Source of the DNA: Acanthamoeba castellanii str. Neff
Taxonomy: Eukaryota > Discosea > Longamoebia > Acanthamoebidae
Reading direction: 5' to 3'
Length of the DNA stretch: 44,421 bases
NCBI RefSeq assembly: GCF_000313135.1
Contig: NW_004457712.1
Span: 893,176-937,596 of the forward strand
In this document: piece after piece, positions 17,472-32,600 of the stretch
How the letters are laid out: each line of letters opens with the position of its first letter
Numbering within the stretch: the stretch's first letter is position 1
Notes under the pieces: model-generated
Databases searched by the model: none
Told to the model about the DNA's origin: nothing
Seen by the model: only the letters and a program-made list of their open reading frames with translations
Position numbers and translations under genes: made by a program

Positions 17472-21011
<3,540 letters not shown>

Positions 21012-24329: not shown

Positions 24330-27300
24330 ATGTTACGGCATCAGGTGCGCAGGTCATGGAGCACGGGCACTGGGCTGGCCTCCCGCAGTGTGGCCCACAC
24401 CGGCGCCGAGGGAATGCAGGCTGCCCGCCTGTTCCGATCTTCCTCCGCCAAAATCGCATCTCCGTCCTGGCCATCTGCTGGTAATCAACACCAAGCCTGT
24501 CGCCTCCGGACTGGGCTGCAGTCCGAACTCCGCCTCTCCGCCCTCACTCGCCGCTTCTTCGCCTCTCCCTCCTACGCCGGTACGCTGCCCATCTCTTTAT
24601 TTTATTTTATTATTATTTAATCGTTTATGCATCATGATTATTTTTCTACTCCAAATAAATAACAATAAATAATAAATCACAGATAAGATGAAGGCGCGGG
24701 TCAAGGACCAGAAGGTGAAGGAGACCGGCAAGGAGGCCAACAAGGCCGAGCGGCTCCAGAAGAAGGGCAAGGGACAGAAGGTCGGCGGCCGCTTCGTGTT
24801 CTCGTGCGAGGGCCTCTCCAAGACCCTGCCCGACGGCCGGCCCCTCTTCACCGATCTCTCCTTCTCCCTCTACGAACGGTGCGCACCTGTGCTTGCTGCT
24901 GTGTCGTGTGCGGTGGTGCGTGTGTCGTGTCGTGTCGTGTGCGGTTCGCCTGCAACTGCCTGACTCGACTGTTTTTGAACCGCGACTCAGATCGAAGATC
25001 GGCGTGCTCGGCCCGAACGGTACGTTGATGCTCGCCACGTGGGTGGTTGTGGTGGCCACACTGTGGCGGTCCTGACATGACACACACACACACACACACA
25101 CGACCAACGACACGACACGACACGACAGGCGCGGGAAAGTCGTCGTTGATGAAGGTCATCGCCGGGCTCGACGACGATTTCGACGGCCGGGCGCACGTCC
25201 ACGATGGCGTCAAAGTCGGATACCTGCCACAGGTCTCAACCCTCCCTCGCAGAACTCTTTGGCCTTTGGGTCGTGTTTTGACATCACACACGCACCGCAC
25301 ACGCACAGGAACCCGAGCTGGATCCCACAAAGGACGTGCGCGGCAACGTGTTGGCTGGCGTGCAGGACAAACTCGACATCCTCGAGGAGTACAACGAGGT
25401 AACACGACACGCACCACACACGACACACACGACAGCACGCACGCACAGCGCGCGCGGCAGATGGTGACGCTGCGGGTCTTTTATTGCAGGTGTGTCGAAA
25501 ATTGGAGGGGGAGAAAGAGGAAGACGACGATGACGATGATAGCGAAGACGAGGATGAGGAGGAGCTGCTCGAGCGCAAGGCCGAGCTCGAGGCGCAGGTG
25601 GAGCAGCTGGGCATCAAGGACCTCAGCTGGCGCATCGACCGCGCCATGCACGCCCTCCGCTGCCCCGAGCCCACCAAGCAAGTCCACTTCCTCTCGGGCG
25701 TACGCCTCACCCACCACCTTAGCCACCATCACCCACCGCCACCGCCACCNNNNNNNNNNNNNNNNNNNNNTGGCAATGGTGGTGCAGGGCGAGCGTCGCA
25801 GGGTGGCGCTGTGCAGGCTTCTGATCTCCGAGCCCGATCTGCTGCTGCTCGACGAGCCCACCAACCACTTGGACGCCGAGTCGGTGGCGTGGCTCGAGCG
25901 CTTCCTCTCCGAGTACAAGGGCACCGTCATGGTACGAACAAACCTCGTCCGGGGGGGGCCGGCTTGCGTTCTTCGCATTCCGTACAGTTCGGTTCTGACC
26001 CGCTGCTAGGCCGTTACACACGACCGCTACTTCCTAGACAATGTGGCCGGCTGGATCCTCGAAATCGACCGAGGTACAAAAAACACCGCACACACGACAC
26101 GACACGACACGACACACGCGCACACCGCACGACACATGTGCTGACGTGGACCGTATTGTGTTGCAGGCGACTGCTTCGTGTACGAGGGCAACTACTCGAC
26201 GTGGCTCACGGAGCACCAGAAGCGAATCGATCTCGAGCAGAAGAAGGACGTGGCGCTCTCGAAGCAGATCGACCAGGAGCTCAAGTGGATCCAGCAGACG
26301 CCCAAGGCCCGCCAGTCGAAGAACAAGGCGCGCGTGAAGGCCTACGAGCAGCTGCTCGAGCAGGCCCGCGTCAAGCCCTTCCAGCCCGGCACCATCCTCA
26401 TCCCGCCCGGACCACGCCTGGGTAACACGTGTGTTGTCGTCGCGCGTGTGCGGTGTGTGCGTGTGCGGTGGCGCGTGTGTCGTGTCATGTTGCTCACACG
26501 GAACCGCAGGGCGAGTTGTGGCTGAGGCGGAGCGTCTGCGGAAGCAGATAGAGGACCGAGTGCTGATCGATGACTTCAGCTTCTCCCTCAAGCCCGGCGC
26601 CATCGTCGGTACGGCACACCGCCTTTTCGTTGTAGTTTGGCTATTCTTGTTCTTCGTGCTTCGTGCTTCGTGCTTCGTGCTTCGTGCTTCGTGCTTCGTG
26701 CTTCGTGCTTCGTGCTTCGTTGTCATTTGCTATTCTTTTCTGTGTGGTGCTTAACAAGCCTGGGCGTATGCGCGCAGGTGTGATTGGGCCGAATGGTGCG
26801 GGCAAGACAACCCTGCTCAACATTCTCTCGGGTGAGGATAAGGACTTCGAGGGCGACCTGAAGATCGGTGAATCGGTAACATGCCCCCCCCCCCACGCAT
26901 CAGTTGTGACGCCGTGTGTGCTGCTGGTGCTTACGCACGCATGACACGCACCACAAAACGCACACGCACGCATGGTACTCACACGACACCGAACACGACG
27001 ACACGACTCATCGCTGCTGCGTGTTGGCCGCTAGGTGGTGCCGGGCTATGTGACGCAGCACCGACAGGACCTGACCGAGGGCAACACCATCTATGAAGAG
27101 ATCTCCGAAGGCGACGACTACATCGAGATCTCCCCCAATAACACCATCCACACCCGCCAATATGTCGCCGCCGTACTTAATCCCCCCTCCCCTCCCCTCC
27201 CAACAGTCGTCATCTTCTTCGTAATCGTCACTCACCACCGTCTTCGTTTTTCGTTCTTTGTCTTCGTTCTTCGTTCTTCATCATCATCAGTTCCGGTTCT

Positions 27301-27650
27301 GGAATCAGCAGCAGGAGAAGACGGTTGACGTGCTGAGCGGCGGCGAGCGCAACAGGGTGCACCTGGCCAAGCTGCTCAAGCGGGGCTGCAACCTGCTGCT
27401 CATGGACGAGCCCACCAACGATCTCGACGTGCACGTGCTGCGCAACCTCGAGGAGGCGATCGAGGCCTTCGCCGGCTGCGCGGTGGTGGTGACCCACGAC
27501 CGGTGGTTCCTGGACCGCGTGTGCACGGACATCATCGCCTTCGAGGGCGACGGCCGCGTGGTCTACTTCGAGGGCAGCTACGGCGAGTACATGGACCGAC
27601 GCGAGAAGCTCAACGGCCCCACACGACACAAGTTCATCAAGCTCAAGTAA
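24330..27650 (+). CDS. EttA-like ABCF ATPase with probable mitochondrial presequence
   Basis: ABCF proteins bind the ribosomal E site; bacterial EttA gates entry into elongation according to ATP level. Thirteen exons: 24330-24579, 24683-24878, 24991-25019, 25129-25232, 25309-25398, 25490-25699, 25788-25931, 26010-26073, 26167-26421, 26510-26608, 26778-26875, 27035-27172 and 27291-27650. All phases agree, total 678 aa. The first about 84 residues are Arg/Ser/Ala-rich and end [11 protein letters not shown], like a matrix-targeting peptide. First ATPase: Walker A GPNGAGKSS, signature [15 protein letters not shown], Walker [16 protein letters not shown]. The linker has [17 protein letters not shown] and IPPGPRLG, as in EttA. 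Second ATPase: [35 protein letters not shown] and [29 protein letters not shown] and the tRNA-contacting linker are far closer to bacterial EttA than to eukaryotic GCN20/ABCF1-3. The arm in domain 1 has an acidic insertion. Confidence 0.93.
25750..25770. other. Assembly gap (21 N) in an intron
   Basis: Twenty-one N bases lie between donor 25700 and acceptor 25787 of the EttA-like gene, next to a CCACCG-rich stretch. Flanking exons join in phase across it (LSG|GERRR), so the coding sequence appears intact. Confidence 0.95.
26652..26720. repeat. (CTTCGTG)n heptanucleotide repeat in an intron of the EttA-like gene
   Basis: Nearly ten perfect copies of a 7-bp unit between donor 26609 and acceptor 26777. 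The unit differs from the GTGTCG family that fills most other introns. Confidence 0.92.
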
Positions 27651-27761: not shown

Positions 27762-29442
27762 TCAGCTGACGAGGCACTTCTTGTCCTTGGCGTCTCCTTC
27801 GCTGCTGCTTGGGCGGAGCTGCTTGGCGTGGCGCCACGCGTCGATCTGGCGCACCATCTCCTCGAACACGACCGTCATCTGGTCCCGATGCACCGTCCAC
27901 AGGCCCTTCGCCTCGGCCGGCGGCTGCACTCCGTGGCCCGACGACCACCTCGTGGCATCGTGGGCCGTGGCGAAGAAGCGCGGGTGGTAGTCGATCACGT
28001 AGTTCTCCTTGACCGAGCACTCGAAGAAGTTTCGCACGAATCTGAAGCACTGGCCGTCGTCGTTCTTGATCGTCGTCGTCTTCTTGTTCTTGTTCTTGTT
28101 CTTCTGCTTCGCCGTCTTGTTGTCGCTCGCGATTGACCGCGAATAGACGGCGAACTGGTCGGCCAGCTGCTTGCCCTGGGCCGGCACGATGGCGCGCTCG
28201 GTTGAGAGGTCGAGCTTGTTGCCCAGAAGGATGATCGGCGGCGCGTCGCGGTCGTCGGTCTCCTTGGTCTGCCGCACGAGCCTGAGCGAGTCCTCCACTT
28301 GGCCGAGATGGCCTTCATTCGTGACCGAATACAGCGCCAGCACTCCCTGCATTGTCGTGTCGTGTCGTGTGTGTCGTATCGCGTGTGTCGTGTCGCATGT
28401 GTCGTGTTAGGGCCACGCGCCACGCGACGACGTCACCAGGAGGAGCTCAACGGACGTACGTCACACCCGCGGAGGACTGGTTCCAGCAGCGCCTGGAACT
28501 CCTCCTGGCCGGCGGTGACCGTTATCTCGAGCGTCGCCATCACCCCGTCGACTTCGATCTCCTTCATGTAACTGAATGAAAAGAATGAAAGTCTGAGCAG
28601 GTCAGACATAATTAAGTCCGCTCGAACATGTGTGCATGCGTGCGTGTGCGGTCGTGAGTGTGCGGTCGTGAGTGTGCGTGTGCGCTGTGGTGTGGTGGTG
28701 GATTGTGCGCTGACCTCTCTTCAACCACGGGATCATACTTGAGAGAAGAAGCCAGGGCGCAGCAGTCAAGCAAACAAGCAAGCAAGCAAGCAACAACAAC
28801 GACCAAGAAATGAGGGGTCGGCCGGTCAATCAACGCAGCAGGCTGTGCGCATCAATCGACCATGCCGGGGCGAGGTACAGCGGTCAAAAAGTGGCCAGAG
28901 GCGAAGTACTGCACGAACGCATTGCGTCCACCGCCGCCCGGACCCACCATCACGATCTTGTATCTATGAGCGCGCGTGTGTGTGCGGTGTGTGTAGTGGT
29001 GAGTGTGCGACCGACAATGTTGGTCCAACCACAACAACATTGCGTCATTGTTGAGTAGATCATAGCGCACATTTGTTGAGTGGTGGCCAGGCGCCTCGGC
29101 ACCCTCCTGCCGCCCAGAGACTGCTGCGCGGCTTCTGTCGCCCACCATCAGTCGAACGGCGCCGTGCGAAAGGCGAATATGTCATTGGGGCACCAGTCCA
29201 GGCGGGGAGGGCTGCGATAATGGCCCACCACTGGCGGCACACGAGCGCGCCCTCGTAGAGGTCGGCCACGCCCAAGTAGCTCAGCACGTGCTCTGCCACC
29301 TGCTCCAATGAGAGATGGATTTTGGAGCTGATCTTCGATGAAAGATGTAGATTTGATTGAGCACCTCATTGGGGAGTTGCGAGAAATCGAGCTGAGTTGC
29401 CGCGTCCCTCCTCCCCGCCTCATCCAAATTTGGTGCCCACAT
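27762..29442 (-). CDS. F-box domain fused to a degenerate Ras-like GTPase with a CAAX tail
   Basis: Seven minus-strand exons: 29365-29442, 29194-29299, 29012-29123, 28879-28963, 28715-28737 (23-nt microexon), 28460-28571 and 27762-28346. All phases agree, total 366 aa. Residues about 20-55 form an F-box: LDFSQLPNE|VAEHVLSYLGVADL, then GALVCRQWW. After a short linker comes a Ras fold: YKIVMVGPGGGGRNAF (P-loop), YDPVVEESYMK (switch I), LEITVTAGQEEFQ (switch II), GVLALYSVTNEGHL, IILLGNKLDL (G4 intact) and ECSVKEN (G5). It ends in CLVS, a prenylation box. Against Ras, P-loop Lys16 is Arg, Ser17 is Asn, Thr35 is Val and Asp57 is Val, so normal Mg-GTP binding is unlikely. A Lys/Asn-rich insert precedes G5. 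If the 70-bp intron (29124-29193) is not used, the locus is instead two genes: a short F-box ORF ending at 29060 and a GTPase starting near 29040. Confidence 0.75.
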
Positions 29443-29606: not shown

Positions 29607-32600
29607 TCACGCCCGTCGGTTCCAGGCGAACGGGTTGAGCGGGATGCTCTTGAACCCGCCGCTGTTCTCCCGCTGCTCTCTATCTTCGGCCGACGAGGCG
29701 CCCGAGCCCAACGACGCCGACGGCGACGAGCCCAGGCCGATGACAGGGGAAGACGACGAAGCCGATGGCGACGAGCCCAGAGCGCCCGACGGCAGGGGCG
29801 ACGCCGGTTGGCCGCCCCGGGGCGAGAGCGCCGTGGTGCTGAACGAGCCACTGTTGCTCGCGCTGCCCATGGTCCCTCGGGGCGACGGGGCTGGGGCTCG
29901 GGGCGACGGCGCACCACCGACACCGCGGGGCGAAACGGCGCCGCTGCTGCCGGCCAGGCCCGGCACGGCCAGGAGGCGCTGCTGCTGCGACTCCTGGCGC
30001 TCGCGGATGAGCTTCTGCATCTCCTGCACCCACGAGTCCCGCTCCATACGCGACCGCGCTCGCCACAGCATCTTCTTGCCCGTGGGCAGCCTGGCATTTA
30101 ACGGCGGTTAAGGTGGTGGCGGACGTGGTAGTGACATGATTTTAAGGTGGCTGTGGTGAGTGGTGGCAAGTACCGCATGATGATGGTGTAGACGTCGGCG
30201 CGCTCGTCGGTGAGGGTCATGATGGAGACGCCGTCGAGGCTCACCTCCTGGCTGTGCTTGAAGGACCGGTTCATGCTGGTGTTGCCCCGCTTCTTCTTTT
30301 TCTCCTTGGCCGTCGTCACGAGCAGGATGTCGTTGAAGAGGAACAGGTAGAAGTCCTTCTCGTTCCGCTTCGACTTGACTCGCGCCAGCGTTCCCTCCTT
30401 GATCAGCTCTCGCCCCGGCTGGATCAAGTTTTTCTGTGTGTGTAGTGTGTGTCGTGCGTGTCGTGCGTGTTGGCGTAAATCGAACCAGTGGGGAAAGGGG
30501 GTGGGGTGGGCGTACGACGGTGGTCTTGCCGGAGAAGGGCGTGCGACGCGAGCGGTCGTAGACGTTGGTGGTGAGCTCGTGCATGCGCTCGGCCCGGTCC
30601 GCCACCCGCTTGCTCTCGTTGATGTAGCTCGCAATCACCTTGACCTTGTCGAGGGCAGCCTGGATGTTGTCGTGGTCGGGGTGGTCGGGCGGGGTGATCT
30701 TGAGGAGATCCCGCAACAGCAGCTCGTAGCGCGGAATTCGCTGCACCGGGCTCTGTTGTTGGGCACACGACACGACGACACACGACACACGTCAATGGCC
30801 GCGGACGACACGTGTGTGTGTGTGTTGGGGGCAGGCGTACGATGAGGAGAGATGGCAGGTCGACAATCTTGTCGCGCGTCGACTTTTCCTTTTCCACACG
30901 CTGCACGCACGCAGGCACGCACAACGATTACAAGAGTGTGAGTGAGCCTCTGCGCCTCGCCATGCATATGACTGGTAGTGGCGGTGCTGACTGGCAACGC
31001 GGGTTCACCTGAATGTGGAGCCTGAAGGCGTTGCTCTGGTTGGTCAGCTCGCGCAGCGTGCGCAGAGCCTTGTCGTAGCCGTTCACGTAGCCCGTGTACG
31101 ATCGCAGCGAATCACTCTGATAACGCACGACACGACCCACACGACATGCGCATATAAACGTTGGCATGAGAGGAATGTGTAGACACATGAGGCGATGGTG
31201 GCGGGGTGCATACCATGTTGAGGAAGACGGCGCCGACGAGGGAGGTGTAGGGGTGCCAGGTGGCGAGGAGGGGCTCGAGCTGCTTGAGGAGGGCCGTGTT
31301 GGTGGTCACCAGCACGTCGACGTCGTTGAAGATCACCTGCACCTCCTCGTGCGGGATGAGGTCCTTGTCGCCGTCCTTCGCCACCAACAGCCCGTCCCGG
31401 AACTACTCGCCACACGACACGACCAGAGACACGACCAGCGACACGACACGACCAACGACCAACGACACGACAAGACGCGTCAGTCGTGCATCCTTGGTTG
31501 GTCTACAGAATGTGCCCAGTTACCTGCTCGAGAAGGAGGAGGACGTCGACGTAGGACTGCTCGGTGGTGAGCATCTCGTTGACCACCTGCCTCCGCTTCA
31601 CGCTCTGCAGACCTGCGAACGACCACAACAGCCAAAGGGAGGGGGTCAAGCCACATTCCAGTCTCGACATTCCTCATATAACCCACATTCCTCGCAATTG
31701 AGAGGGACCACGCACGGAGACGCTGGAGCTGCTTGCGGGCGAGCCATCGGCGGATGGCGCACTGGGCGGTCACGATCTTGCCGTGCTGCCAGCGTGTAGG
31801 GTCGCTCGTACGCCGCGACACGGGCCGGCGGGACTCGCTCAGCGCCCGCTTCTTGCGGGCCTCGTCGAACTCGCGCTGCGCGCGCTCGACCTCCTCCCGC
31901 TCGCGTTCCTCGCGCTCGCGCTTCTCCCGCTCCCTCTCCTCCTCCTCGGCTCGCCGTTTTCGCGCCAATTCCTCTTCGGACGCCTGCTGCTCCCTCCACT
32001 CTTCGAATACCACCTGCACGCCGGCCTTGCTGCGGCCCGCCAACTGGCCGCCGCCGTTGGAATGCAGCGCGCCGGCGCTGGCCGCATTCCGTGCATGCTT
32101 GCCACCGTCGTGGTGATGGTGATGCCGTGTCGAGCCACCATTGATGGTTTGGTCGCTCTCGAAGTCGGACCCGGCCTCGGTCTCATCGTCGTCGTCGTCG
32201 GAATCGGAGGAGGAAGAGGACGAGTCGCTGTCCATGTCGGTGTCGGTGTCGGTCTCGAGGTCGGTGTCGAGCGAGGACACGTCCACCACTTCGCTTTCGA
32301 ACGCGCGCAGCTGGCGCATGCGCTCCAGGTGTCGCCTCGCGTCTTCGTCCTGCTGCAGCTGTTGTCGCCTTCGCTTCTCCTGCTCCTCGCTTTCCCTTCG
32401 CTCTTTTTCGCGTCGTTCGCGCTCTTCCCGCTCCCTCCGCGCCCGCTCCTCAGCCTCCTCCCTCTCCCTTCGCTCTTTCTCCTCCCGCTCCCTTTTCGCC
32501 CTTTCCTCTCTCTCCCTCCGTTCCCGCTCCTCCCTTTCACTTCGCTCTTTCTCCTCTCTTCGTTCTTTCTCCTCCCTCTCCCTCTTCGCTCTTTCCTCTC

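What the first reader, a model, noticed from the sequence alone, without database searches (positions are those of the whole stretch)
27762..29442. F-box domain apparently fused to a Ras-like GTPase with a CAAX box
Seven exons join with consistent phases into a 366-aa frame: F-box (LPNE|VAEHVLSYLGVADL), short linker, Ras fold, CLVS tail. An F-box would recruit the SCF ligase (a CUL1 gene lies in this window), and the CAAX tail would place it on membranes. I know of no described protein with this architecture. The key join is the 70-bp intron at 29124-29193, which has a GACTGAT branch-like motif and removes an in-frame stop.
Basis: partly seen in the sequence, partly recalled or inferred. Interest (0 to 1): 0.88.

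Follow-up and report, generated by a model that had tools for sequence, protein, structure and literature searches.

The report
F-box fused to degenerate Ras GTPase
An Acanthamoeba gene very probably joins an F-box (a handle for a ubiquitin ligase) to a Ras-like domain that has probably lost normal GTP binding and to a membrane-anchor tail, and the same genome holds about twenty similar F-box plus small-GTPase genes, hinting at a family of membrane-addressed protein-tagging adaptors.

Summary
A paralog (C109) and an intronless relative (P0002) fix the frame: the protein has 350 aa, not 366. Intron 2 ends at 29135 (59 bp), not 29124; intron 3 starts at 29070, not 29011; the 37-residue linker is out of frame.

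All six corrected introns match C109 introns in position and phase. Pfam finds F-box-like and Ras; the protein ends CLVS.

The Ras domain is degenerate (K16R, S17N, T35V, D57V; NKxD kept); C109 shares K16R, T35V and D57V, with S17C. Probably a pseudo-GTPase.

It is not a one-off. In this Acanthamoeba castellanii-like genome I count 21 loci with an F-box part upstream of a small-GTPase part on the same strand (seven rest on similarity to one deposited protein), with Ras/Rap-, Rac- and Rab-like GTPases. NCBI already holds some, named only "Ras" or "Fbox".

Likely role (inferred): membrane-tethered SCF substrate receptor, the CUL1 counterpart of RhoBTB (CUL3) and Rab40 (CUL5). F-box-ARF fusions were mentioned in 2021, so this is a new variant of a known kind. 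No expression or binding data.

The parts
29365..29442 (-). exon 1: ATG (29442) to LPNE; start of F-box
   Evidence: same first residues in deposited protein P0001
29194..29299 (-). exon 2: rest of F-box (VAEHVLSYLGVADLYEGALVCRQWWAIIAALPAW)
29213..29385 (-). F-box (residues 20-55; interrupted by intron 29300-29364)
   Evidence: Pfam F-box-like E 2.1e-8
   Evidence: frame test; same position and phase in paralog C109
29071..29134 (-). exon 3, corrected: linker EAAQQSLGGRRVPRRLATTQQ
28879..28963 (-). exon 4: start of Ras domain with degenerate P-loop
28921..28944 (-). P-loop GPGGGGRN, residues 90-97 (Ras GxxxxGK[ST]; K16R, S17N)
28715..28737 (-). exon 5: switch I region YDPVVEE(S) (T35V)
28460..28571 (-). 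exon 6: VTAGQEE (Ras DTAGQ; D57V)
27762..28346 (-). exon 7: NKLD, SVK, inserts, C-terminal helix region, CLVS, stop
27765..27776 (-). CaaX box CLVS
   Evidence: CLVS also in P0005, P0006, P0007; CLLM in P0002 and P0003

Best explanation
The gene encodes a substrate receptor of an SCF-type (SKP1-CUL1-F-box) ubiquitin ligase in which a Ras-derived pseudo-GTPase takes the place of the usual substrate-binding module. The N-terminal F-box docks SKP1/CUL1. The Ras fold, no longer a normal Mg-GTP switch, is a fixed recognition surface, perhaps for Ras regulators or effectors. The prenylated CLVS tail holds the ligase at a membrane. Shown: the gene structure by homology, both domains, the tail, the degenerate motifs, and the family in this genome. 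Inferred: SKP1 binding, prenylation, loss of GTP binding, substrate choice.
For: F-box-like and Ras over Pfam's cut-offs in the corrected model. The paralog C109 has the same order F-box-Ras-CaaX, and its introns 1-6 match the window's six introns in position and phase 0,1,2,0,2,0; window introns 1, 4, 5 and 6 were set, before any paralog was seen. P0002 carries both domains in an intronless 342-aa frame on a 1169-base contig. On C65 the F-box and the P-loop stand in one uninterrupted 490-aa frame (Pfam scores the F-box there, the P-loop piece is too short for Pfam, but aligns to a canonical Ras together with the next exon). K16R, T35V and D57V are shared by the window gene, C109 and P0002, so they are not a local sequencing slip. 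A Skp1-family domain (3 placements) and cullin segments are present in the genome. The CaaX box is kept in 3 of 3 last-exon relatives P0005-P0007.
Against: No transcript or protein of the window gene itself was seen; the deposited protein P0001 is spliced differently, lacks part of the F-box and the P-loop, and its F-box-like score (18.0 bits) is below Pfam's cut-off. In the corrected model PF00646 (18.9 bits) is also below its own cut-off (20.5), though PF12937 passes. Loss of GTP binding is read from motifs only; NKxD and an SAK-like motif are kept. In the AlphaFold model of P0002 most Ras-core blocks are 74-94, but the F-box blocks are only 55-59, and the 50 structure matches shown are to Ras-family chains. 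Related F-box-GTPases such as P0016 keep all five G motifs, so degeneracy is not general.
Confidence: 0.6

Rival explanations
1. Two adjacent genes: a short F-box protein that ends at 29060 and a separate Ras-like gene whose first exon lies near 29040.
For: Without splicing of intron 2 the F-box frame stops at 29060.
Against: The paralog model C109, the intronless P0002 and the deposited P0003 each carry both domains in one frame. On C65 no splice is needed between F-box and P-loop. In the corrected model the region near 29040 is intronic.
Confidence: 0.04
2. The protein works as a nucleotide-regulated Ras that happens to carry an F-box, so that GTP loading switches the ligase on.
For: NKLD and SVK are kept. 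The related fusion P0016 keeps all five G motifs. RhoBTB2 binds GTP despite deviations (PMC4931677, passages).
Against: K16, S17, T35 and D57, which contact phosphate and Mg2+ in Ras (recalled), are all changed in the window gene and in its paralog.
Confidence: 0.2
3. The gene makes the transcript of the deposited annotation (P0001): the F-box cut short after GALV and joined to exon 6, leaving no complete domain at the N terminus.
For: P0001 is the deposited Neff model: first 46 residues, then an exact 231-residue suffix of the corrected protein.
Against: It removes the second half of the F-box and the P-loop that the paralog and P0002 keep. An annotation error in introns of a small GTPase of this strain is documented for Rab7A (PMC10913462, passages).
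Confidence: 0.06
4. An F-box protein with non-proteolytic or SKP1-only function: the F-box serves stability or trafficking and no ubiquitin ligase is formed.
For: Such F-box proteins are known (recalled). Nothing here tests cullin binding.
Against: Nothing found here speaks against it directly.
Confidence: 0.1

Closest known systems
RhoBTB proteins (CUL3 adaptors)
   Same: A small-GTPase domain with deviant motifs in one chain with a cullin-adaptor domain; RhoBTB3 also has a CaaX box (PMC4931677, passages)
   Different: Rho, not Ras; two BTB domains and BACK lie after the GTPase; CUL3, not SKP1/CUL1
Rab40 family (CUL5 adaptors)
   Same: A small GTPase in one chain with a ligase-recruiting box (PMC10509765, passages)
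   Different: Rab with a C-terminal SOCS box and CUL5; said there to have originated in bilaterians
ARF-family proteins with an F-box or BTB domain
   Same: The 2021 survey mentions ARF-family proteins with BTB or F-box domains as lineage-specific architectures (PMC8358228, passages)
   Different: ARF, not Ras, Rho or Rab; the word Acanthamoeba does not occur in that main text
FBXL2
   Same: An F-box protein with a C-terminal CaaX box, prenylated and so placed on membranes (PMC9141697, passages)
   Different: Leucine-rich repeats instead of a GTPase domain
P0003, P0012 and P0016 (deposited A. castellanii Neff proteins)
   Same: Same F-box, then small GTPase, then CaaX order
   Different: Named only 'Fbox domain containing' or 'Ras' protein; P0012 and P0016 carry ankyrin repeats, and P0016 has a Rab-like domain with intact motifs

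Membership tests
F-box proteins | F-box domain over the curated threshold | tested here: met
   PF12937 34.3 bits, cut-off 24.3; PF00646 18.9 bits lies below its cut-off of 20.5
F-box proteins | binds SKP1 | not testable with these tools
   Skp1-family domain at 3 placements in the genome
Ras superfamily fold | homologous Ras domain | tested here: met
   PF00071 99.1 bits, cut-off 21.6; for the relative P0002, Foldseek to Ras structures, TM-score normalised by target 0.79-0.92 in the 50 rows shown
Canonical Ras GTPase | G1 GxxxxGK[ST] | tested here: not met
   GPGGGGRN; paralog GPGGVGRC
Canonical Ras GTPase | G2 threonine (T35) | tested here: not met
   V in the window gene and in the paralog
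Canonical Ras GTPase | G3 DxxGQ | tested here: not met
   VTAGQ; paralog VSAGQ
Canonical Ras GTPase | G4 NKxD | tested here: met
   NKLD
Canonical Ras GTPase | G5 SAK | tested here: inconclusive
   SVK in the window gene, SIE in C109, SIK in P0002
CaaX proteins | C-terminal CaaX | tested here: met
   CLVS, also in 3 of 3 last-exon relatives; CLLM in C109 and P0002
CaaX proteins | prenylated in the cell | not testable with these tools
   motif only
RhoBTB | Rho-type GTPase followed by BTB domains | tested here: not met
   no BTB match in Pfam at E up to 0.01
Rab40 | Rab-type GTPase with a SOCS box | tested here: not met
   no SOCS box match at E up to 0.01; best solved relative R-Ras2

The most novel reading that the evidence does not exclude
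Acanthamoeba has evolved a family of about twenty SCF substrate receptors whose reading head is a small GTPase: Ras-, Rac- and Rab-like domains fused behind an F-box, mostly with a CaaX anchor. They would be compartment-addressed ubiquitin ligases, some with live Rab domains that could be switched by GTP and some, like the window gene, frozen as pseudo-GTPases. That would be a third, SKP1/CUL1-based class beside RhoBTB-CUL3 and Rab40-CUL5.
Probability: 0.4. Interest if true: 0.8.

Novelty: new variant of a known kind. Interest (0 to 1): 0.62.

Why it matters
Small GTPases joined directly to cullin adaptors are rare among characterised proteins; [quoted passage not shown] A multigene F-box-GTPase family in an amoeba that can be transfected (PMC10913462, passages) would show that this coupling arose on the SKP1/CUL1 side too. 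It would also give live and dead GTPase versions of one architecture for asking what the nucleotide switch adds to a ligase. It also corrects a deposited gene model.

Tried and rejected
Two-gene reading: rejected because the C109 model, P0002 and P0003 have both domains in one frame. Partial circularity: I chose the corrected sites of introns 2 and 3 with P0002 in hand; introns 1, 4, 5 and 6 were set before.

Structure: the first AlphaFold job on P0002 with 7 sequences failed (mean pLDDT 35.5). The second with 13 sequences gave 68.3; it supports the Ras core but not a confident F-box, and the 50 PDB rows shown match Ras-family chains. tblastn of P0002 against the phage collection found no match. 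In the viral structure library the best rows are giant-virus Ras/Rab proteins, not pursued further.

Database reach: among the hits of the three protein searches (4, 10 and 5 proteins), those with both F-box and GTPase domains are P0003, P0012 and P0016 (A. castellanii Neff) and P0002 (no name); P0001 has a sub-threshold F-box piece. The tool finds only relatives sharing exact short words, and searches scored only the roughly 8000 candidates sharing most words, so absence elsewhere is weak evidence. No scan of metagenome contigs was available.

Literature: ten searches, eight aimed at such fusions and two at comparators. One search listed 20 of 55 papers, one search listed 8 of 9 and one search listed 8 of 28. 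No listed title or abstract start was about an F-box-Ras, F-box-Rho or F-box-Rab fusion; only six papers were opened, by find passages. The library lacks most subscription journals.

Full report
What is there. The window lies in an unnamed 38.4-Mb genome. The corrected window protein and a protein deposited as 'Ras subfamily protein [Acanthamoeba castellanii str. Neff]' (P0001) share their first 46 residues and an exact 231-residue end, so the source is that species or a very near one.

Correction of the gene model. A relative, P0002 (342 aa, on a 1169-base contig), has F-box and Ras in one intronless frame. It matches my spliced model of the paralogous gene on contig C109 at 311 of 339 aligned residues; that gene has seven introns, 574 bases in all, so P0002 is most likely from a spliced transcript (inference; the source code 'lgn' I take to be Logan, recalled). 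The corrected exons are 29442-29365, 29299-29194, 29134-29071, 28963-28879, 28737-28715, 28571-28460 and 28346-27762, giving 350 aa. All six introns sit at the same place and phase (0,1,2,0,2,0) as introns 1-6 of C109, which has one more. Sites 2 and 3 were chosen with P0002 in view, so they are not independent; sites 1, 4, 5 and 6 were set, before. The global score against C109 rises from 595 to 630 and against P0002 from 569.5 to 605.5; identity rises only slightly (152 of 329 to 155 of 324 for C109). The deposited model P0001 skips the rest of the F-box and the P-loop, and its F-box piece scores below Pfam's cut-off.

The Ras domain is degenerate. Aligned to a canonical Ras of the same genome, the P-loop reads GPGGGGRN (K16R, S17N), switch I YDPV (T35V) and DTAGQ becomes VTAGQ (D57V), while NKLD and SVK remain. 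C109 and P0002 share K16R, T35V and D57V and have S17C. These residues hold phosphate and Mg2+ in Ras (recalled). The best solved relative is R-Ras2. For P0002 an AlphaFold model with 13 sequences (mean pLDDT 68.3; most Ras-core blocks 74-94, F-box blocks 55-59) matches Ras structures; an earlier model with 7 sequences was useless (35.5).

It is a family. Between the 145 F-box placements and the 150 Ras placements listed of 176, 15 pairs lie within 4 kb: 7 on the same strand, all with the F-box upstream, at 6 loci, and 8 on opposite strands; no same-strand pair has the F-box downstream. About 0.42 same-strand F-box-first pairs within 1.5 kb are expected by chance; the Poisson tail for six or more is 6e-6. 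The 8 opposite-strand pairs also exceed the like estimate for 4 kb (2.3), so neighbours are not random in this genome; within 1.5 kb the opposite-strand pairs are 2, both at one locus on C93. Neither the window nor C109 is among the six, so the scan undercounts.

I fetched 15 further loci (L029-L043): C109, the six, the C65 near-copy C128, and seven more from a search with the C207 frame. Both parts are supported on one strand, F-box first, in 13 of 15. The exceptions are L036 (C128), cut by the contig end, and L040 (C190), with F-box and linker but no GTPase match. A search with P0016, whose F-box is at residues 97-138, shows eight further groups by my eye (five on C133, two on C84, one at C124:184k). 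Seven have segments over at least part of the F-box and over the GTPase; the C124 one has no F-box segment. None of these seven appears in the Pfam F-box lists, so they rest on similarity to P0016 alone. With the window that makes 21 loci (1+13+7). In three loci (C65, C207, C124:54k) the F-box and the start of the GTPase stand in one stop-free genomic frame. Pfam scores both domains in that frame only for C207; for C65 and C124 it scores the F-box alone, the P-loop of C65 being seen by alignment and that of C124 by eye.

The GTPase type differs: C65 is nearest Rap1, C15 nearest Rac1, P0016 nearest Rab proteins. A frame ending in a CaaX-like box is seen in 10 of the 13 loci (CLLM in C109; CLLQ, CTLQ, CVLQ or CLVQ in C15, C207, C189, C101, C124, both C131 loci, C133 and C93); C65 has none in my model, and I did not see one for C171 and C235. 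Ankyrin repeats are scored by Pfam in P0012, P0016, C207 and C189. Motifs vary: P0016 keeps all five; C65 has G15D and lacks NKxD; P0012 keeps G1-G3 but not G4 or G5; C15 has DTAGS and CKKD. Degeneracy is therefore not universal, which speaks against one simple pseudo-GTPase story for all.

How it most likely works. SCF adaptors dock through the F-box to SKP1 and CUL1 (established knowledge). A Skp1-family domain and cullin segments exist in this genome. The window gene would then be a membrane-tethered SCF receptor with a frozen Ras surface as bait. SKP1 binding, prenylation, loss of GTP binding and the substrate are all inferred. The CaaX box is kept in three of three last-exon relatives (72-78% identical), which suggests it matters.

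What is known. RhoBTB proteins join a deviant Rho domain to CUL3-binding BTB domains, and RhoBTB3 has a CaaX box (PMC4931677, passages). Rab40 joins a Rab to a CUL5-binding SOCS box (PMC10509765, passages). FBXL2 is a prenylated F-box protein (PMC9141697, passages). A 2021 survey mentions ARF-family proteins with F-box or BTB domains (PMC8358228, passages). The main text of the A. castellanii genome paper does not contain the word F-box (PMC4053784, find), and a study of A. castellanii Rab7-like proteins does not contain the word ankyrin (PMC10913462, find) or, by the search listing, F-box. Eight literature searches aimed at such fusions listed no title or abstract start on F-box-Ras, -Rho or -Rab fusions; one search showed 20 of its 55 papers. 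Database entries with the architecture exist (P0003, P0012, P0016), so the sequences are not new; what seems unreported, within these searches, is the family. I call it a new variant of a known kind.

Noticed in passing
C133:5831-33005 (own genome): A cluster of five loci related to P0016 (ankyrin-F-box-Rab), on both strands, looks like local duplication.
   Followed up: partly
C65:63635-64147 and C128:25737-26252 (own genome): A canonical-looking Ras gene sits divergently about 2.4 kb from the F-box of the C65 fusion gene; contig C128 repeats the arrangement and ends inside the second copy, so it may be a haplotype or a segmental duplicate.
   Followed up: no
window 30098-30791 (-): The neighbour just upstream on the same strand has RhoGEF and weak PH matches; in my reading of the frames it ends at 29607, about 165 bp before the F-box-Ras start.
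   Followed up: partly
window 27225-27650 (+): The convergent neighbour matches ABC_tran and ends about 110 bp from the stop of the F-box-Ras gene.
   Followed up: partly
window 17643-20705 (+): Cullin gene; one exon matches CUL2 and CUL1 chains about equally.
   Followed up: partly
viral structure library: The best viral structure match of the P0002 model is a 342-residue 'Ras GTPase' of Marseillevirus LCMAC101 over 251 columns; whether it has an F-box-like N terminus was not checked.
   Followed up: no
window 28346-27762 (-), residues after NKLD and after SVK: Two inserts in the Ras domain, partly shared with the paralog C109, have no counterpart in the canonical Ras.
   Followed up: no
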